Assembly: GCA_023380675.1 (NCBI GenBank)
Contig: JAMCRS010000246.1
Span: 1 to 25,898, forward strand
DNA length: 25,898 nucleotides
Reading direction: 5' to 3'
Origin: Chloroflexota bacterium
Lineage (GTDB): Bacteria > Chloroflexota > Anaerolineae > UBA4142
A program made the translations under genes and the position numbers. Positions 7,878-16,192 of the stretch are shown in pieces. Positions within the stretch are counted from its first letter, which is position 1. Each line of letters opens with the position of its first letter. Under the pieces are notes generated by a model, which worked only from the letters and a program-made list of their open reading frames with translations, did not search any database and was not told the DNA's origin.

Positions 7878-9032
7878 TTAGGCGGCGGCGACGCCCGCGA
7901 CCTGGGCCGGGGCGCGTTTAATGCGGGTCGAGCGCTCACTTGCCGGCGCCAGCGCGCTCACCGGTATCGAATAGACTCCGTCCGCGCCCACGCTGCGCGC
8001 CCGGAGCTCGTACGAGACGATGCGGGGGCGGGCGAACCCCTTCGTCCGGCTGCGCCGCGCGGCGAGACGCACGATCTCGTCTGCCAGATCGCCGTACGTC
8101 ATGCCGGCCACACGCGCGGCGCGCGCGATGCCGGCGTCCGCCGACAAATCCGCGTTGGGGTTGACCTCCAAAACGTACGGCGTCCCATTCTTCACGCGGA
8201 GATCGACCCGCCCATAGTCCTGCAGCCCCATCGCCATATAGGCGCGGCGCGCCACGTCCTCGATGCGGCCTTTGACCGCGTCGCTCACGCGCGCCGGGCA
8301 AGTCGGCGGGGTCCCCAGGTACTCGTCGGAGTTGGGCACCCACTTGGCGCGGAACGAGACGATGCGCGCGAATGGATTTTGAATGCGGCGGAAATTGATC
8401 TCGGAGAGCGGAAGGACCCGCGGCGACTCGTCTCCGAGGAGGGTGACGTTGAATTCACGCCCCTCGACGAACTCCTCGACGAGCGCTGGCTGATGGTACA
8501 TCTCCCAGATAAAGCGCACCTGCCGGCGGAGCGACCGATCGTCGTGCACGACGGAATCGAGCGTGATCCCGATACTCGCGTCCTCGGAGATCGGTTTGAC
8601 GAACAGGGGGAATTCGAGTTGACGCTGGATGTTCCAGGGGGTGAGGATCTGGTACGCCGCCGTGGGAATGCCGTGTGCCTTGAGCACTTCTTTCGCACGC
8701 GCCTTGTTGAGGCACTTGGCCAGCGTGCGTCGATCGGAGCCGGTGTATCTAAAACCCAGATGCTCAAAGACCGATATGATGTACGGCTCGAGGTAGGTCT
8801 TGTTCCGGATGCTCTCGCACAGATTGAAGATGAACCATTCGCTTGGATCGTATTCTTTCAGCGGTCCCCACAGGTCGTCGTTGATCGGGACCGCCGCCGT
8901 CGTGTGACCGTGCTCCTGCAGCGCCTTCTCGATATCTCGTTCGACTAAAACGATTTCCTGTTCGGCAAATAGATCGTCATCTGAGCCTTGTTCCAATTTA
9001 TCGACGACGTTATAAACGACCAAGATCTTCAC
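7878..9032 (-). CDS. ATP-grasp ligase, D-Ala-D-Ala ligase-like
   Basis: The 384-residue protein has an ATP-grasp fold like D-alanine-D-alanine ligase. An N-terminal KILVVYN strand leads into the preATP-grasp domain. FNLCESI and YTGSDRRTLAKCLNKARAKEVLKAHGIPT follow, where the ligase family has a similar pre-ATP helix, then FVKPISEDASIGI (ATP lysine and Gly-rich loop), VEEFVEGREFNVTLLG and LEVNPNADLS, which carries the Mg-binding Glu and Asn. It should join a carboxylate to an amine using ATP. The substrate is unknown, and it need not be a peptidoglycan enzyme. The start is placed at the GTG at 9032, since a -10 box at 9096-9101 makes a more upstream start unlikely. GAGGG lies close before. It is followed tightly by a GNAT gene. 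The C-terminal 50 residues are a basic tail unlike the family. Confidence 0.88.
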   Translation of the reverse strand: MKILVVYNVVDKLEQGSDDDLFAEQEIVLVERDIEKALQEHGHTTAAVPINDDLWGPLKEYDPSEWFIFNLCESIRNKTYLEPYIISVFEHLGFRYTGSDRRTLAKCLNKARAKEVLKAHGIPTAAYQILTPWNIQRQLEFPLFVKPISEDASIGITLDSVVHDDRSLRRQVRFIWEMYHQPALVEEFVEGREFNVTLLGDESPRVLPLSEINFRRIQNPFARIVSFRAKWVPNSDEYLGTPPTCPARVSDAVKGRIEDVARRAYMAMGLQDYGRVDLRVKNGTPYVLEVNPNADLSADAGIARAARVAGMTYGDLADEIVRLAARRSRTKGFARPRIVSYELRARSVGADGVYSIPVSALAPASERSTRIKRAPAQVAGVAAA

Positions 9033-9091
9033 GACACCCTCGTCCCGGAGTGATTGTGATCGACGCAATCGCGCGTAGAATTTTTCTTCAT
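9029..9091 (-). CDS. Possible 20-residue leader peptide upstream of the ATP-grasp gene
   Basis: On the minus strand an ATG at 9091 opens 20 sense codons that end with TGA at 9031-9029. That stop overlaps the ATP-grasp start in the four bases GTGA. The ATG lies only 5 bases after the -10 box TATAAT (9101-9096), so the mRNA would be nearly or fully leaderless and the peptide would couple translation to the ligase gene. The peptide begins with a basic MKKNSTR and is otherwise polar. This may be chance. Confidence 0.3.
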   Translation of the reverse strand: MKKNSTRDCVDHNHSGTRVS

Positions 9092-9095
9092 TTCC

Positions 9096-9101
9096 ATTAT
9101 A
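9096..9101 (-). promoter_or_regulatory. -10 box for the ATP-grasp/GNAT pair
   Basis: A perfect TATAAT reads leftward at 9101-9096, about 64 bases before the chosen GTG start. No good -35 hexamer is seen 16-18 bases upstream, so an activator or a weak -35 would be needed. Confidence 0.5.
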
Positions 9102-9183
9102 CACTACTATTGATGGAATCAGACCTTAAAGTTTCCGCGCGGCGTGTTTTCGAAACGCGCGGAGCGAATTCGCGCGCGTCGCC

Positions 9184-9513: not shown

Positions 9514-11802
9514 ATGCCCTCAAAGCTTTCGGTCCACTTGAGCGGTTACCCCAACAACTCGTTCGATATCCTGGGCAAGATCCAACCCAGCGTCGTCAAA
9601 GTCTTCAATCAGTCGAGCGAAATGAACGTGGACGAGATCCGTCGCCGCTGCGGCGCACTCATCATCTACCGCGAGTTCGTCGACGTCGACTATCACACTT
9701 CGGCCGATACGTTCTATTTCAAGATGAAGAACTCGCTCGACAAGCTGCGCGGGCGGGGGATCATTTGGGAGGGCCTCAACGAGCCGGTGACGGACTCCGT
9801 CGACGACGCCAAAGCCCTCAACGCCTGGTACGTGCGCTTTGCGGAGATCATGCATGCGGAGGGAGAGCTGGTGGCGGGATTTTCGTGGTCGACCGGCAAC
9901 CCGACGCCCGCCAAATGGAACTCGATCCTTCCCTATATCGTCGACGCCGCCGCGGCGACCGACGTGCACGCCTTTCACGAATACTATAGCCGTGTCGGCC
10001 TCGGGCGGGACTGGGGCCTCTATCGGACCTTCGAGCAAGCGTTGCCGGCCAGCGCACGCAAGCCGGTCGTCGTCACCGAAGCCGGCTATGACGACAACGG
10101 CCAGCCGAATGGCGGTTATCTCGGCAAGATAACCGCTGCGCAATACCTGGAGATTCTCAAGCAGTACGATCAGGTGCTGCTCCAGGACCCGTACGTCCTC
10201 GGCGCGACGATCTTCCAATGGGGCGACGGGAGCTGGCCTTCGTTCGATCTTTCGCCGGAGATCAAACTGCTTTCGGATTATATCGTCTCGGTCGGCCAGG
10301 GCGCTCCCGTGTCCAAGCCGTGGACGATTCCCTCGTTCGGACCCGTGGTCGCTTTCGCGGCGTCTCCCGCGGCCATCTACGCGGGCCAGCAGTCCACGCT
10401 AACCTGGAACGTCGCAAGCGCGCAAACGGTCACGCTCGACGGCCAGTCGGTTGCGGCGAGCGGCTCGACGTCGGTCGCGCCGGCGGCGACGACCACGTAT
10501 ACTCTCCACGTCGTCTTTTCCGACGGGAGCACGCAGGACCTGACCGCGACGGTGACGGTGACGACGAGCACGGCCCCCCTGATCTTGCAGGCGACCTTGA
10601 GCCCGTCCACCTTGCAGAGCGGCGACCTGCTCAACGTGAGCGTGACGGTCAAGAACGACACCACGGCGACGATTGCGACGGAAGGCCCGGACCCCGGATT
10701 CGTGTACGACGAAGGGGATACGTTCTATGCGCGCGGCTACCCCGATGTCGGGGGCGCTCTCCGCGTGGGCGTGGATTTCGAAGGTCATTCCGGTATCGAT
10801 CATCCTTATCGTTGGGGACTAGGCGCTCCGCTCACTCCCGGTCAAAGCGTGACCGTCACGGGCGCGATTCGCCTCAAGACGGCCGGTGCGGTCCGTTATT
10901 GGGTCGGTCTCGTTCGCGAGCAGGTGGAGTGGCTCGAGGACAATCAGGGCGCCGGCACGGTCACGGTAAAGCCCGCTCCCGCCAACGTGGTCCAGATCAC
11001 GCGGGTCTCCATCACACCCGCGACGTTGAACGCCGGCCAGGTCTTGAACGTGAGCATCACCGTGACCAACAATACCGCCAATCCGTTGACGACGCAGGGA
11101 CCCGACCCGGGCTTTGTCTACGACGAGGGCGATACCGTTCAAACGCGCGGTTTTTCGGAGCAGCGCGGGGCATGCCGCGTCGGAATCGATTTCGACGGTC
11201 GCACCGGGATCGACCATCCCTATCGCTGGGGTTTGGGAACGCCCCTTGGAGCGGGATCGAGCGCCGCGATCACCGGCGCCATCCGCCTCAGGACTCCCCA
11301 AACGATAAACTATTGGGCCGGCCTGGTCGACGAACAGATTGCATGGCTGCAGGACGGCCAGGGCAAGCTGGCCGTGGCGGTCGGCGCCGCGCCCCGTGCG
11401 GTCCAGATCGTCAGCGCCGTGTTCTCTCTTCAGACGGGCCCGTCCGGCGCGGTGCTGAACGTCGCGATCACTGTCTTTAACAATACGAGTCAGACGATCA
11501 CGACCCAAAACCCCGATCCGGGACAGGCGTATGCGGAAGGCGATACGTTCTACACACGCAATTTCCCCGATGTCGGCGGCGCGTACCGGGTTGGCGTCGA
11601 TTTCGACGGCCGTACCGGCATCGACCATCCCTATCGCTGGGGGCTGGGCGGTTCGTTGGCGGCGGGTCGAATCGCGACGATCACCGGGACCATAGCGCTG
11701 AGCAAGCCGCAGACGGTCCGCTATTGGGCCGGTCTCGTGCGCGAGCAGAACGTCTGGCTGCAGGACAACGTCGGCACGACAACGATCACGGTGACGTCTT
11801 AG
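9514..11802 (+). CDS. Modular glycoside hydrolase-like protein with Ig and three unnamed repeat domains
   Basis: This 762-residue protein starts at ATG 9514 after GGAGGCGAG. Residues 1-265 form a TIM-barrel of clan GH-A type: the acid/base Glu90 sits in WEGLNEP and the nucleophile Glu189 in VVTEAGYDDNG, with AFHEYYS between. Residues about 280-350 are one Ig-like module. Then come three copies of a module of about 136 residues starting near 357, 492 and 629. Each has LNVSITV-type strands, (G/N)PDPG, a Y(D/A)EGDT turn, RVG(V/I)DF, DHPYRWGLG and YW(A/V)GLV. No signal peptide or membrane segment is visible, odd for a protein expected to act on external glycans. The next gene, 28 bases on, repeats the catalytic domain. 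The family is inferred from motifs; the substrate is unknown. Confidence 0.85.
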   Translation: MPSKLSVHLSGYPNNSFDILGKIQPSVVKVFNQSSEMNVDEIRRRCGALIIYREFVDVDYHTSADTFYFKMKNSLDKLRGRGIIWEGLNEPVTDSVDDAKALNAWYVRFAEIMHAEGELVAGFSWSTGNPTPAKWNSILPYIVDAAAATDVHAFHEYYSRVGLGRDWGLYRTFEQALPASARKPVVVTEAGYDDNGQPNGGYLGKITAAQYLEILKQYDQVLLQDPYVLGATIFQWGDGSWPSFDLSPEIKLLSDYIVSVGQGAPVSKPWTIPSFGPVVAFAASPAAIYAGQQSTLTWNVASAQTVTLDGQSVAASGSTSVAPAATTTYTLHVVFSDGSTQDLTATVTVTTSTAPLILQATLSPSTLQSGDLLNVSVTVKNDTTATIATEGPDPGFVYDEGDTFYARGYPDVGGALRVGVDFEGHSGIDHPYRWGLGAPLTPGQSVTVTGAIRLKTAGAVRYWVGLVREQVEWLEDNQGAGTVTVKPAPANVVQITRVSITPATLNAGQVLNVSITVTNNTANPLTTQGPDPGFVYDEGDTVQTRGFSEQRGACRVGIDFDGRTGIDHPYRWGLGTPLGAGSSAAITGAIRLRTPQTINYWAGLVDEQIAWLQDGQGKLAVAVGAAPRAVQIVSAVFSLQTGPSGAVLNVAITVFNNTSQTITTQNPDPGQAYAEGDTFYTRNFPDVGGAYRVGVDFDGRTGIDHPYRWGLGGSLAAGRIATITGTIALSKPQTVRYWAGLVREQNVWLQDNVGTTTITVTS
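10588..11799 (+). repeat. Three tandem protein modules of about 136 residues
   Basis: Within the first glycosidase gene three consecutive coding repeats start near 10588, 10987 and 11398. They are clearly homologous at protein level (PDPG, EGDT, VDF-G-(S/T)GIDHPYRWGLG, YW-GLV-EQ-WL(E/Q)D) but diverged in DNA. I know of no named domain for this unit. Confidence 0.85.
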
Positions 11803-11830
11803 CTGCGCTCCCACGCGGAGAGGTGAGACC

Positions 11831-14800
11831 ATGCCTTCAAAACTCTCGATTCATCTGAGCGCGTACCCGAGCCGGGTGTTCGACGTTCTCCAAAAGATGC
11901 AGCCGAGCGTCGTCAAGGTCTATAACTTTTCGAGCGAGATGAATATCGACGAGGTGCGCCGCCGCTGCCCGAACGTCGTGATCGTGTACCGGCAGTACAC
12001 CAATCAGGATTTCCGCGCACCCGCCGATGCGTTCTTCGCCGAGATCGGCGACACGCTCATCAAGCTCCGAGGGCGCGGGATCTATTGGGAAGGGCTCAAC
12101 GAGCCGGTCGTCAAGTCCGTCGACGACGCCAAGGCCCTGAACGCGTGGTACGTTCGATTTGCGGAGCTGATGCACGCGCAGGGAGAGAAGGTCGCCGGGT
12201 TTTCGTGGTCGACCGGCAATCCAACGCCGGACGTGCAGAGCGCGATCGTCCCTTTCCTCGTCGACGCCGCGGCGGCGGTCGACGTTCACGCGTTCCACGA
12301 ATACTACAGTCGCGCCGGCGAGGGCAAGGATTGGGGTTGCTACCGCACGTTCGAGCAGGCCCTGCCGCAAGCCGCCCGCAGACCCGTTGTCATTACAGAG
12401 GCCGGCCTCGACGACAACGGAGACCCGTACATCGGCGGTTGGCGCGGCCACAAGACTCCGCAAGAGTACCTCGAGATCCTCAAGGGCTACGACGCGATCC
12501 TGCTTCAGGACCCGTACGTCCTGGGCGCAACTCTGTTCCAATGGGGAGACTACGGCTGGCCTTCATTCGAGCTGACCAACGTCATCGATCTGCTCACCGC
12601 CTACGTTCAATCCGCCGGCGGCGGCGCCGCGATTCCACAGCCCTGGCCCGTGCTCGAGACGCCGGCGGTCCCGGTCTATTCCTTCTCGGTTAGTCCAGAC
12701 ACGATCCAGGTCGGCCAGTCCGCCGAGCTCAAGTGGGATGTCGACGGAGCCAAGTCGGTAATGCTGGACGGTCAGGCGGTGGCCGATCATGGCACCTGGG
12801 CCGTCACCCCGACTCAAACCACTACTTACACGCTCCGCCTGGAATTCTCTGATGGGTCCGCCAAAGAACTGTCCACGACGGTGACTGTTCAAGCTCCGCA
12901 AGCGACCTACACTTTCTCGTCGACGCCGGGCATGATCCAGGCCGGCGAGTCGTCCGTGCTGAGCTGGGATGTGCAAGGGGTCAGATCGGTCGCGTTGGAC
13001 GGGCAGGCCGTCGCCGGGCACGACACGCGCACCGTTACGCCGGCCAAGACCACCACCTACACGCTCCAGCTCGTCTTGTTTGACGGGTCGACGAAGGACT
13101 TGCAGGCGACGGTGACCGTTCAGATCCCTCAGGCGATCTACGCTTTCTCGGCAACGCCGGAAACGATCCTGTTGGGTCAGTCCACCGTTCTCAAGTGGGA
13201 TGTAGAAGGGGTCAAATCGGTTGCGTTGGATGGCCAGGCCGTGGCCGGGCACGACACGCGTACGGTCACGCCGGCGCAGACCACTACCTATGTGATGCGT
13301 CTCGGCTTGTATGACGGGTCGACGAAGGACTTGCCAGTTACGGTGACCGTTCAAATCCCGCAGGCGATCTACGCTTTCTCGGCAACGCCGGAAACGATCC
13401 TGTTGGGTCAGTCCACCGTTCTCAAGTGGGATGTAGAAGGGGTCAAGTCGGTTGCTTTGGACGGGCAGGCCGTGGCCGGGCACGACACGCGTACGGTCAC
13501 GCCGGCGCAGACCACTACCTATGTGATGCGTCTCGGCTTGTATGACGGGTCGACGAAGGAATTGCCAGTTACGGTGACCGTTCAAATCCCGCAGCCGACC
13601 TACGCTTTCTCGGCGACGCCGGCGACGGTTCAGTCGGGTCAGTCCTCCGTGCTAGAGTGGGACGTGGAAGGGTACAAGTCCGTCGCATTGGACGGCCAGG
13701 CCGTCGACGGACACGACACGCGTACGGTCACGCCGGCTCAAACCGCTACCTACACGCTGCAACTGGTCCTGCACGACGGTTCGACGAAAGACCTGCCGAC
13801 GACCGTTACCGTCGAGATCCCACCCACCTACGCTTTCACGGCGACGCCGGCGACGGTCCAGTCCGGCCAGTCCGTCGCACTCAACTGGGATGTCGAGGGA
13901 GTCAAATCAGTTGCGTTGGACCATGAGACCGTCGAGGGGCATGGCACGCGAACGGTCAAACCGACCCAAACAACCATCTACGTGCTGCACTTGGAGTTCT
14001 TGGACGGGACGGCCAAGGACTTGGCGGCGACGGTACTGGTGCAGCCGCCGCGTCAGCCCACCACCTCCAGTTTTTCGGTCGAACCGGCGTCGATCACTGC
14101 CGGGGCGCAGGCGACCCTCAAATGGGCGACGCAGGGCGCGAGTCGAATCACGCTAGACGATCGACCAGTAGCGGCGAGCGGAACGGAGACCGTTTCGCCG
14201 ACCGTGACGACGGTTTACGGCCTACACGTCGAATTCGTCGACGGCTCCACGCGCGACCTCACGGCGCTCCTCACCGTCCAGCCACCGCCCCTGGAGAAGG
14301 GTGCCACCTTTGCGGTCGATCCGAACACGATAGTCGGCGGCGGCCCGGCGACCTTGACGTGGGCGACCAAAGGGGCGACTGTCGTACTGCTCAATGGACA
14401 GGCAGTCGCTACATCCGGCTCGCAAATGGTTGCGCCGGCGCAAACGACGACGTACACGCTGCACGTCGAATTCGAAGACAAAACCGTCAAAGACCTCACG
14501 GTTGCCGCGACCGTGGCGCCAACACTTGTGACGGGCCCCACTCGATCGCCGACGGTGGTGTTGACAGCGCAAAACGTGGCGCAGCTCAAGACCTATCCGC
14601 GTCCCGTCCAGGACAATGGGCGCGGGCTGCACTTTACCATCGACCTGCGCGATTCGCTCATCGCCAGCACGGTCCAGAACCTCAATTCCATCCGCTGCAA
14701 GTGGACTATGATCTATGCTCAGGACGAGCTGCAGGCCGGCCGTGCGGCCAAAGCGTGCTGGAACGCCGGCATCATGCCGGTCGTGCGGATCGGCAAAAAG

Positions 14801-16192
14801 ATCGACGAACCCTTCGATCCGGCGGCGTACGTCAAGGCGCTCACATCGGTCGGCGCACCCCCCTACGTCCAGCTCTACAACGAGCCGGGCGATTCGCGCG
14901 AGTGGAACCACCTTCCGGCGAGCCAGGATCTGAATCACATATTTGGCGGTCGGTGGGCAGCCGGTGCCCAGGTGATCTTTGAGGCCGGAGGTTACCCGGG
15001 TATCCAGTGCCTCGACCCGATGGAACTCAAGGCGGCCGTCGAGAGCGCCGGCAAATCGCATCCGCTTTGGCAAAAGGCGTTCTTCGTCCAACACAACTAT
15101 GGGGCGAACCATCCGCCGGCGTATCCCTACGACGCGCGCAACCAGCAAGACCACCCCAATGCGACGATCTTAGACGACAACGTCGGGGTGCTGGCCTTCC
15201 TCGACATCGCGCACTGGATGATGGAATACTTGGGGTTTGTCATTCCGATCGTCGGCGGCGAGGGAGGCTGGGAGTACGGCGCCGACCAGGACAATCGCTA
15301 TCCCAAGGCCGAGCAGCCGTACCACGCACGATATCACGCGGAGATGTTCGAGTGGTTCCAGACCGGCGTGCTGTCCAACGGAGAGCCGCTGCCCGACTAT
15401 GTGTTCAGCATAACGCCGTGGATCGCCGGGGGCTGGGGCGCCGACGATTGGTGGGGCGGTGTGCTGGGGGACAAGACCGAGACGATAAACGCGGTTGCCG
15501 CGCTTGTGCCGTTCGTGCGCAAGTTCAGCTGGGACGCGGCGGCGACGACACCTAATCTGTCTTTCACCGCTGCGCCGGCCAGCCTGGCGGTCGGCGCGTC
15601 AGCGACGCTCGACTGGCAGGTCGACGGCGCGGACAAAGTCACGCTCGACGGAGCGGCGGTCGCGGCGTACGGAACCCGCATCGTCACGCCGGCGACGACG
15701 ACGACGTACGTCTTGCACGTCGCTTTCCCGGACGGAACGTCCCACGACCTGAGCGCCACCGTGACCGTCGCGGTGCCGGCACCGCCTACCGGAGTACAGT
15801 GGGACTCGCGCCTGGATGGATTGGGGGTCAAGGTCAAAGCGTCCGAAGCGGCGCATTCATGGCGAGTCGTCGCGGCGCAATTAGAGGACCCGGGCCAGAC
15901 GGGCCAAAATCACCACGTCTACCTCAAGGCGCAAAGCGCCGATGGATCGCCCGCTGCGGGAATCCCCTTTGTAATCGATTGGGTCGGCCGCGATCAGGGC
16001 GATCAACCGGCTACTGTCACGACCGACTCCAAGGGCGAGGCCAACTGTCCTCTCTGGGCCACCTTTTCGCCCTCGCTCAAGAACGGAATCTACTCAGTGA
16101 CGACGGCAAAGGAAGCCGGCGACGCGGTGAGTGGGATGGGCCTGCCGGACGCTCGGCACGTCAACTTTATTCTGACCTTCAAGCACGGTTGA
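11831..16192 (+). CDS. Giant modular protein: two glycosidase-like domains and nine Ig-like modules
   Basis: The 1453-residue product starts at ATG 11831 after GGAGAGGTGAG. Order: residues 1-265, a GH-A-type barrel close to that of the preceding gene (Glu91 in NEP, Glu190 in ITEAGLDDNG). Residues 282 to about 900 are eight tandem Ig-like modules of about 77 residues (F-x-P, LxWDVxG-(K/R)SVxLDGQAV, TTTYxL-L-DGSxKDL, TVTV). Residues 912-1237 are a second, different barrel-like domain (GLHFTIDLRDS, VQLYNEPGDS with Glu1018, IPIVGGEGGWEYG with Glu1144). Then come a ninth Ig module (about 1242-1317) and a C-terminal beta domain (NHHVYLKAQSADG-PAAGIPF). There is no signal peptide, anchor or sorting signal. 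It is probably cotranscribed with the gene before it. It probably binds and cuts polysaccharide; this is inference. Confidence 0.87.
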   Translation: MPSKLSIHLSAYPSRVFDVLQKMQPSVVKVYNFSSEMNIDEVRRRCPNVVIVYRQYTNQDFRAPADAFFAEIGDTLIKLRGRGIYWEGLNEPVVKSVDDAKALNAWYVRFAELMHAQGEKVAGFSWSTGNPTPDVQSAIVPFLVDAAAAVDVHAFHEYYSRAGEGKDWGCYRTFEQALPQAARRPVVITEAGLDDNGDPYIGGWRGHKTPQEYLEILKGYDAILLQDPYVLGATLFQWGDYGWPSFELTNVIDLLTAYVQSAGGGAAIPQPWPVLETPAVPVYSFSVSPDTIQVGQSAELKWDVDGAKSVMLDGQAVADHGTWAVTPTQTTTYTLRLEFSDGSAKELSTTVTVQAPQATYTFSSTPGMIQAGESSVLSWDVQGVRSVALDGQAVAGHDTRTVTPAKTTTYTLQLVLFDGSTKDLQATVTVQIPQAIYAFSATPETILLGQSTVLKWDVEGVKSVALDGQAVAGHDTRTVTPAQTTTYVMRLGLYDGSTKDLPVTVTVQIPQAIYAFSATPETILLGQSTVLKWDVEGVKSVALDGQAVAGHDTRTVTPAQTTTYVMRLGLYDGSTKELPVTVTVQIPQPTYAFSATPATVQSGQSSVLEWDVEGYKSVALDGQAVDGHDTRTVTPAQTATYTLQLVLHDGSTKDLPTTVTVEIPPTYAFTATPATVQSGQSVALNWDVEGVKSVALDHETVEGHGTRTVKPTQTTIYVLHLEFLDGTAKDLAATVLVQPPRQPTTSSFSVEPASITAGAQATLKWATQGASRITLDDRPVAASGTETVSPTVTTVYGLHVEFVDGSTRDLTALLTVQPPPLEKGATFAVDPNTIVGGGPATLTWATKGATVVLLNGQAVATSGSQMVAPAQTTTYTLHVEFEDKTVKDLTVAATVAPTLVTGPTRSPTVVLTAQNVAQLKTYPRPVQDNGRGLHFTIDLRDSLIASTVQNLNSIRCKWTMIYAQDELQAGRAAKACWNAGIMPVVRIGKKIDEPFDPAAYVKALTSVGAPPYVQLYNEPGDSREWNHLPASQDLNHIFGGRWAAGAQVIFEAGGYPGIQCLDPMELKAAVESAGKSHPLWQKAFFVQHNYGANHPPAYPYDARNQQDHPNATILDDNVGVLAFLDIAHWMMEYLGFVIPIVGGEGGWEYGADQDNRYPKAEQPYHARYHAEMFEWFQTGVLSNGEPLPDYVFSITPWIAGGWGADDWWGGVLGDKTETINAVAALVPFVRKFSWDAAATTPNLSFTAAPASLAVGASATLDWQVDGADKVTLDGAAVAAYGTRIVTPATTTTYVLHVAFPDGTSHDLSATVTVAVPAPPTGVQWDSRLDGLGVKVKASEAAHSWRVVAAQLEDPGQTGQNHHVYLKAQSADGSPAAGIPFVIDWVGRDQGDQPATVTTDSKGEANCPLWATFSPSLKNGIYSVTTAKEAGDAVSGMGLPDARHVNFILTFKHG
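12674..14530 (+). repeat. Eight tandem Ig-like coding repeats, unit 231 bp
   Basis: Units begin at 12674, 12905, 13136, 13367, 13598, 13826, 14063 and 14300. The first four steps are exactly 231 bp; later ones are 228-237 bp. Units 3 (13136-13366) and 4 (13367-13597) differ at only a few bases, so they arose by a recent duplication or gene conversion. A ninth, distant copy lies at about 15554-15780. Confidence 0.92.

What the first reader, a model, noticed from the sequence alone, without database searches (positions are those of the whole stretch)
9514..16192. Two-gene operon of giant modular glycosidase-like proteins without signal peptides
Two adjacent genes share a barrel domain of about 265 residues with intact Glu pairs, but carry different beta-module tails. 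The second adds a second, unrelated barrel with its own candidate Glu pair. Both begin MPSKLS and show no signal peptide, anchor or sorting motif, although this architecture is normally extracellular. Either export is by an unusual route, or the proteins act inside the cell or after lysis, or the true starts are missed. This is the best candidate in the window for an undescribed polysaccharide-acting system.
Basis: partly seen in the sequence, partly recalled or inferred. Interest (0 to 1): 0.72.

Follow-up and report, generated by a model that had tools for sequence, protein, structure and literature searches.

The report
Giant leaderless endolysin-like glycosidase pair
Two neighbouring genes in a Chloroflexota bacterium encode very large, probably sugar-cutting enzymes without export signals, built from unclassified catalytic barrels that also occur in wall-dissolving enzymes of phages, which points to a little-known cell-wall lysis toolkit.

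Summary
ORF1 (9514-11802, 762 aa) and ORF2 (11831-16192, 1453 aa) share a barrel with intact Glu pairs; ORF2 adds a second. The starts are right. Neither barrel has a Pfam family. A barrel-1 profile finds only clan-GH-A-type glycosidases in the PDB (best E=0.001); a barrel-2 profile finds nothing. The pair, with a divergent D-Ala-D-Ala-ligase-like gene, recurs in one other genome, and both ORF2 barrels are under purifying selection.

Likely reason for the missing leader: barrel-1 proteins are mostly leaderless, and those with a recognised partner domain often carry peptidoglycan hydrolases (Amidase_2, GH24, GH25, M23, SLT, SpoIID). Five of 13 phage contigs have such a fusion; one phage protein joins both ORF2 barrels. 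Chromosomal clusters combine barrel 1, a third barrel and an amidase that share a 66-aa module.

I read the pair as endolysin-type wall glycosidases kept on the chromosome and released by lysis. The peptidoglycan link is weak for barrel 2, and exported relatives exist in other branches. New variant of a known kind.

The parts
9514..11802 (+). ORF1, 762 aa, leaderless modular glycosidase-like protein
   Evidence: 35 of 35 closest relatives (P0002-P0036) start at the same residue
9500..9504 (+). Shine-Dalgarno-like GGAGG of ORF1
   Evidence: read from sequence
9514..10323 (+). barrel 1 of ORF1 (E90 at 9781-9783, E189 at 10078-10080)
10351..10565 (+). Ig-like unit of ORF1 (approximate limits)
   Evidence: by eye from the translation
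10570..11799 (+). three ~118-aa tandem repeats of ORF1 (approximate limits)
   Evidence: by eye from the translation; no Pfam match above cut-off in ORF1
11831..16192 (+). ORF2, 1453 aa, leaderless protein with two barrels
11817..11827 (+). Shine-Dalgarno-like GGAGAGGTGAG of ORF2
11831..12640 (+). barrel 1 of ORF2 (E91 at 12101-12103, E190 at 12398-12400)
   Evidence: dN 0.139 / dS 0.941 against the relative in L002
12680..14520 (+). eight Ig-like units (approximate limits); tandem array of period 231 bp at 12701-13958, two adjacent units 97% identical in DNA
   Evidence: Pfam Rib, Gal_mutarotas_3 and COMM score just above cut-off on such units
14522..15547 (+). barrel 2 of ORF2 (E1018 at 14882-14884, E1144 at 15260-15262)
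   Evidence: dN 0.164 / dS 1.579
15556..15774 (+). Ig-like unit after barrel 2 (approximate limits)
   Evidence: by eye from the translation
15767..16189 (+). 141-aa C-terminal domain; a homologue forms the N-terminal part of a small protein beside amidase genes in five other genomes
   Evidence: 34-48% identity, E 4e-17 to 3e-40
7878..9104 (-). D-Ala-D-Ala-ligase-like gene, divergent neighbour of the pair, kept beside it in genome G002
   Evidence: PF07478 E=7e-26; 82% identical in the same place in L002

Best explanation
ORF1 and ORF2 are endolysin-type cell-wall glycosidases without a leader: large proteins whose catalytic barrels (distant clan-GH-A-type glycoside hydrolases, Glu/Glu pair) cut glycan strands of the cell envelope, most likely peptidoglycan or a polymer attached to it. 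The Ig-like units, the ~118-aa repeats and the C-terminal domain act as spacers and wall binders. The proteins accumulate in the cytoplasm and reach their substrate when the membrane fails or the cell lyses, the way phage endolysins do. SHOWN: gene structure, starts, conserved catalytic residues, purifying selection on both ORF2 barrels, a pair conserved in a second genome; barrels of these families fused to or next to peptidoglycan hydrolases in bacteria and phage contigs. INFERRED: GH-A fold (weak sequence profile for barrel 1, motif only for barrel 2), substrate, role of the tails, release by lysis, and purpose (self-lysis, use of sibling or rival walls, or captured phage lysin).
For: Barrel-1 profile against the PDB: 26 distinct sequences at E<=1, all glycosidases of kinds I recall as clan GH-A (GH5, GH51, GH2 beta-glucuronidase, GH158 and others), best E=0.001; in the top alignment NE and TE-G fall on the mannanase's NEP and EEYG. 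Wide barrel-1 search: 100 proteins listed, 17 with a precomputed Pfam domain, all 17 peptidoglycan hydrolases or binders (8 Amidase_2, 3 SpoIID, 1 each GH24, GH25, M23, SLT, SLT_3, LysM). Leader: of 164 barrel-1 proteins among the 194 (window's two included), 155 start at a barrel, 8 have an extension without and 1 with an SP-like stretch. Phages: 13 distinct IMG/VR contigs hold barrel 1 or 2; 5 of 13 have a peptidoglycan hydrolase in the same chain (GH24 L006/L013, GH25 L009, M23 L011, Amidase_2 L101 and L108); in L007 the next gene is an amidase; in L109 an SLT gene lies upstream. L109 encodes barrel 2 and barrel 1 in one chain. Chromosomal clusters L054, L058, L060: barrel-3, barrel-1 and Amidase_2 genes, each ending in the same 66-aa module. 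ORF2's C-terminal domain recurs in a small gene carrying that module, beside an amidase gene or amidase-containing frame, in 5 genomes. Selection and synteny.
Against: Neither window protein carries a recognised peptidoglycan hydrolase, wall-binding domain or the 66-aa module (the module search covered P0001 and P0063, the window's two proteins, among the P set), and no convincing holin-like ORF lies beside them. The window is housekeeping chromosomal DNA. In the length-matched search with ORF1 20 of 62 relatives have a precomputed Pfam domain and only 5 of the 20 are peptidoglycan-related. For barrel 2 the link is weak: 29 of 61 have a Pfam domain and only 2 of the 29 (M23 in P0081, SLT_3 in P0088) are peptidoglycan hydrolases. 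The 'holin-like' phage ORFs rest on hydropathy; only one (L105) has a holin-family match, under its cut-off. Viral scans with the window's own barrels found nothing, and two viral-contig barrels found nothing among 50,697 named phage records. Exported relatives exist: 11 barrel-1 loci (by eye) and 16 of 30 barrel-2-only proteins. Single-sequence PDB searches gave only weak hits: barrel 1 a TPR protein (E=0.07) and beta-agarases (0.18), barrel 2 unrelated proteins (0.14 and above). No structure, no activity.
Confidence: 0.52

Rival explanations
1. The proteins are exported by a leaderless route (for example a contractile injection or other one-step system) and degrade extracellular polysaccharide outside living cells.
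For: Giant modular architecture typical of secreted enzymes (general knowledge); signal-bearing relatives of both barrels; few peptidoglycan partners for barrel 2.
Against: No secretion or injection genes recognised among the window's ORFs, and none noticed by eye in the 20 stretches (gene lists from a crude gene caller, no family search for such genes).
Confidence: 0.22
2. Cytosolic enzymes acting on an intracellular glycan (storage polymer or recycled wall fragments).
For: No leader; divergent neighbour is a D-Ala-D-Ala-ligase-like gene kept in a second genome.
Against: Long Ig-like arrays; fusions of the family to enzymes that act on the wall; phage-contig relatives fused to or next to lysis enzymes.
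Confidence: 0.13
3. Remnants of phage lysis genes left on the chromosome, without a present function.
For: Related barrels in phage contigs; viral-contig and chromosomal barrels interleave on the tree, at least 7 changes.
Against: dN/dS about 0.15 and 0.10 in the two ORF2 barrels against L002; pair and divergent neighbour conserved; no phage genes recognised around it; G+C like its surroundings.
Confidence: 0.07
4. The barrels are wall-binding or inactive GH-A folds that only target the proteins.
For: No activity is known; in many fusions another catalytic domain is present.
Against: Both Glu and their neighbours are almost invariant across diverse members.
Confidence: 0.06

Closest known systems
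Phage endolysins (modular, leaderless, with Amidase_2, GH24, GH25 or similar domains)
   Same: No signal peptide; modular; relatives fused to or next to those domains in viral contigs
   Different: Window pair is chromosomal, very large, has no holin beside it and no classical endolysin domain. The endolysin noted for viral contigs of a Yellowstone mat with Roseiflexus (PMC5017753, passages) is GH108, another family
Clan GH-A glycoside hydrolases (GH5, GH51, GH2 and others)
   Same: NE(P) and TE-G motifs; barrel-1 profile hits only such enzymes in the PDB; Pfam cellulase PF00150 is precomputed for three relatives (P0021, P0043, P0049)
   Different: E-values marginal; window proteins and nearly all tested members have no Pfam family; barrel-2 profile has no PDB hit
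PF11790 Glyco_hydro_cc (from memory, linked to GH128 beta-1,3-glucanases)
   Same: Weak matches in a few relatives: P0048 over its barrel-1 part (19.6 bits, cut-off 21), 1 of 35 barrel-1 rows (E=0.0066)
   Different: The only match above cut-off (P0039, 24.5 bits) lies outside barrel 1 (residues 414-458); window proteins do not match
Catalogued bacterial cell-wall glycosidases (review PMC6403190, passages only: GH3, GH22, GH24, GH25, GH73)
   Same: Some members occur with amidase modules
   Different: The review says only GH25 and GH73 glycosidase domains occur with an amidase domain; a GH-A-type barrel with Amidase_2 is outside that statement

Membership tests
Clan GH-A glycoside hydrolase | Glu acid/base after Asn (NE) and Glu nucleophile, conserved | tested here: met
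   barrel 1 34 and 35 of 35, barrel 2 26 and 26 of 26
Clan GH-A glycoside hydrolase | Sequence relation to known members | tested here: inconclusive
   barrel 1: 26 PDB sequences, best E=0.001; barrel 2: 0 hits
Clan GH-A glycoside hydrolase | (beta/alpha)8 fold with Glu at strands 4 and 7 | not tested
Clan GH-A glycoside hydrolase | Retaining glycosidase activity | not testable with these tools
   needs assay
Endolysin | No signal peptide | tested here: met
   (hydropathy and start check; no SP program)
Endolysin | Hydrolyses the cell wall | not testable with these tools
   needs assay
Endolysin | Encoded by a phage in a lysis module | tested here: not met
   chromosomal housekeeping region, no phage or holin gene recognised; some relatives do meet it
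Endolysin | Known peptidoglycan-cleaving domain in the chain | tested here: not met
   none in ORF1 or ORF2; present in 5 of 13 viral-contig relatives
PF11790 Glyco_hydro_cc | Pfam match at cut-off | tested here: not met
   window none; 1 of 35 barrel-1 rows at E=0.0066
Known anti-phage defence protein | PADLOC model match | tested here: not met
   0 of 6 proteins, both window ORFs among them

The most novel reading that the evidence does not exclude
Anaerolineae and phages of theirs share an undescribed lysis toolkit made of at least three unclassified GH-A-type barrel families, mixed and matched with amidase and other peptidoglycan hydrolases. It includes wall glycosidases of a fold class not known for that job. 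The bacteria keep giant leaderless versions on the chromosome as lysins released by cell death, to open sibling or competitor walls.
Probability: 0.25. Interest if true: 0.85.

Novelty: new variant of a known kind. Interest (0 to 1): 0.6.

Why it matters
It gives a testable answer to why giant glycosidase-like proteins in a major environmental phylum have no export signal. It points to glycosidase-like families, without a Pfam or PHROGs family in nearly all members tested here, that seem to serve as wall-lytic modules of phages and bacteria. More than half of the Anaerolineae-class genomes sampled carry such barrels (178 of 298 for barrel 1; 162 of 298 for barrel 2), mostly in smaller proteins. 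If they cut peptidoglycan they would add a fold class to the lysozyme-like enzymes; if they cut another wall polymer they would be a handle on the poorly known Chloroflexota envelope.

Tried and rejected
Missed start codon: rejected. Prophage island in the window: rejected; neighbours are a D-Ala-D-Ala-ligase-like, a CrtC lipocalin, a dienelactone-hydrolase, MreB and PBP2 gene (Pfam) and, named from memory of their sequences, DapB, L25, MreC, MreD, MinC and MinD. Functional link to the adjacent mre/mrd/min genes: of 18 window neighbours only the ligase-like one was found (tblastn E<=1e-8) in the loci held, in L002 and in L022, another cut of the same genome; many of those loci are short, so this is weak evidence of absence. 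Holin beside the pair: none convincing (two ORFs of 49 and 55 aa lie inside or antisense to the big genes). Contractile injection system: one literature search (one listing, not opened), no genes noticed. Defence: no PADLOC match. PF11790 membership: not met. Named phage records: no match. Viral scans with the window's barrels and with P0055: nothing. A GH25-like tail seen by eye in L012 and a peptidase-like part in L010 had no Pfam match and are not counted. Loci lists hold the same places under two ids. A C-terminal dN/dS figure was out of frame and is discarded. The gene caller often chose the wrong strand in G+C-rich DNA. The module model contained the phage copy it then found; rebuilt without it, L109 still matches at E=1.6e-7.

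Papers: PMC10803476, PMC5017753 and PMC6403190 seen as passages; all others as search listings. Searches that listed no description of such enzymes: (open-access library only).

Full report
What is there. ORF1 (9514-11802) and ORF2 (11831-16192) lie head to tail, 28 nt apart, each behind a good Shine-Dalgarno sequence. Their first ~270 residues are 67% identical. The starts are secure: the frames upstream of the ATGs run only 21 and 12 codons to a stop and are hydrophilic. Of the 62 proteins (the window's own ORF1 included) 60 carry the SK(L)-type motif in the first 9 residues, and 35 of 35 of the closest ones start like ORF1. No hydrophobic leader or sorting motif is present.

Where it is. 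Named relatives are Anaerolineae / Chloroflexota metagenome genomes, and the window's other genes are housekeeping. No whole genome is held for the window. The pair has a divergent D-Ala-D-Ala-ligase-like neighbour, and the same three-gene arrangement is present in the genome of L002, the ligase-like protein being 82% identical. On the tree ORF1's barrel groups with the L002 upstream gene (SH-aLRT 100) and ORF2's with the L002 downstream gene (93), so the pair is older than that split. In the P lists a 764-aa or 765-aa and a 992-aa relative have equal contig lengths twice (P0010/P0022 42,496; P0011/P0026 23,032), which suggests more such pairs; I could not read those contigs. Barrels 1 and 2 of ORF2 have dN/dS of 0.139/0.941 and 0.164/1.579 against L002 (the second dS is near saturation).

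What the barrels are. In ORF1 no Pfam family passes its cut-off; in ORF2 Rib, Gal_mutarotas_3 and COMM pass narrowly, all on Ig-like units; no NCBIfam model passes (best 57 of 60 bits, on Ig-like units). Of 35 barrel-1 members, three Pfam families were each matched by one member at E 0.003-0.008 and one PHROG by one member at 0.0095; of 26 barrel-2 members none matched Pfam. The barrel-1 profile finds 26 distinct PDB sequences at E<=1, all glycosidases of kinds grouped in clan GH-A (clan assignment from memory), best E=0.001. The single ORF1 barrel finds only a TPR protein (0.07) and two beta-agarase sequences (0.18). The barrel-2 profile finds none, the single barrel 2 only unrelated proteins at E 0.14 and above, so its GH-A assignment rests on the NEP ... 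H-Y ... GEGGW pattern.

How common. In 298 genomes drawn from the class of one relative, barrel 1 matches in 178, barrel 2 in 162, and a third barrel type (query from L058) in 160 at E<=1e-20. Most of the barrel-1 matches listed are in frames of some 300-600 aa, not giant proteins.

Leader or no leader. Among the 194 proteins (window's two included; the list may be capped at 100), 164 carry barrel 1: 155 start at a barrel, 8 have an N-terminal extension without and 1 with an SP-like stretch. Of 30 with barrel 2 only, 16 have an SP-like start (hydropathy threshold). In the genome loci 11 barrel-1 proteins (L036, L039-L046, L049, L050) have N-terminal extensions, most looking like Tat or lipoprotein signals followed by Pro/Thr-rich linkers (by eye). 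On the tree the eight of these that were included lie outside the window's supported clade of 31 rows (98), in which no row has an SP-like start (quick tree, deep branches weakly supported). So exported relatives exist, but the lack of a leader in the window's clade is stable.

What the leaderless ones go with. In the wide barrel-1 search every one of the 17 proteins (of 100) with a precomputed Pfam domain has a peptidoglycan-related one. In the length-matched search with ORF1 20 of 62 have a Pfam domain and 5 of those are peptidoglycan-related (LysM twice, GH24, Amidase_2, SLT, four of the five confirmed). With barrel 2 the link is thin: 29 of 61 have a Pfam domain, 2 of those are peptidoglycan hydrolases (M23 in P0081 and SLT_3 in P0088, confirmed).

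Viral contigs. Thirteen distinct IMG/VR contigs hold barrel 1 or 2. I found hallmark genes in four: a virion structural protein in L007, terminase in L008, terminase and portal in L102, portal in L105; the others rest on the collection's own classification, and L009's other neighbours look bacterial to me. L013 (same contig as L006): a PHROG peptidase, then barrel 1 fused to GH24 (PHROG endolysin, E=1e-39), then a membrane ORF. L007: structural protein, barrel 1, then an amidase (PHROG endolysin). L009: barrel 1 with GH25; L011: barrel 1 with M23. L101: two barrel-2-type domains with Amidase_2; L108: barrel 1, Amidase_2 and a weakly matching barrel 3. L102: terminase, portal, another ORF, then barrel 2, then a membrane ORF. 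L105: a gene with a weak holin-family match (PF05105, E=0.0015, under its cut-off) two genes upstream of barrel 1. L109: an SLT gene, then a 939-aa protein with barrel 2, barrel 1 and a module-like tail (E=1.6e-7 by a model that excludes it), then a small membrane ORF. The membrane ORFs are holin-like by hydropathy only; of those put to the family libraries none but L105's has a holin-family match. L109 is thus a phage-contig counterpart of ORF2, with its barrels in the other order. Viral-contig and chromosomal barrels interleave on the tree with at least 7 changes (several long branches; L104 not checked beyond its barrel match).

Chromosomal clusters. In L054, L058 and L060 barrel-3, barrel-1 and Amidase_2 genes lie together on one strand, none with a recognisable leader by eye, and each of the three ends in the same 66-aa module. 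L054 also has a 1138-aa gene with barrel 1 and barrel 3 that lacks the module. L113 and L114 have a barrel-3 and an amidase gene with the module; L111 runs barrel 1, barrel 2, then barrel 3 with the amidase and the module twice. L055 and L057 have the barrel 3 - barrel 1 pair. A 216-220 aa gene carrying the module lies beside the amidase gene or amidase-containing frame in L054, L112, L113, L114 and L115, and its first part is 34-48% identical to the C-terminal domain of ORF2. This links the window pair to the amidase clusters by sequence, although the pair itself lacks module and amidase. A match to this amidase-plus-module protein is found at E<=1e-20 in 20 of 298 genomes (some of those matches are to the module alone).

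Conclusion. The best reading is a pair of endolysin-type wall glycosidases kept on the chromosome. It resembles an endolysin in build, but it is not filed as one, since two defining features (phage lysis module, known peptidoglycan-cleaving domain) were tested and not met. Substrate, release and purpose are inference. No description was listed in nine searches of the open-access library; a review of cell-wall hydrolases (PMC6403190, passages) says only GH25 and GH73 glycosidase domains are found joined to amidases.

Noticed in passing
L058 8413-9693, L054 13097-14305, L060 1217-2428: A third barrel type (FGMHD start, ~320 aa); the L058 member has no Pfam match and the type occurs in 160 of 298 genomes. 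Loci L059 and L061 hold ~1614-aa proteins that appear to carry all three barrel types.
   Followed up: partly
L054, L055, L057, L058, L060, L111-L115: A 66-aa C-terminal module shared by barrel 1, barrel 3, amidase and a small fourth protein in the same clusters: a candidate wall-targeting domain.
   Followed up: partly
L036, L039-L046, L049, L050: Barrel-1 proteins with signal-like N-terminal extensions, another branch of the family, of unknown function.
   Followed up: partly
P0090-P0093, P0095-P0098: Lipoprotein-like proteins with barrel 2 towards the C-terminus; five of the eight have a propeller Pfam hit (PF07494).
   Followed up: no
window 13126-13587: Two adjacent 231-bp Ig-like units of ORF2 are 97% identical in DNA, so the array seems to change by recent duplication.
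   Followed up: no
L002 995-3492: The ORF1 relative is split over two frames in this assembly, while an intact relative (P0003) exists elsewhere.
   Followed up: no
P0017: An ORF1-like protein with a precomputed DUF362 domain (PF04015).
   Followed up: no
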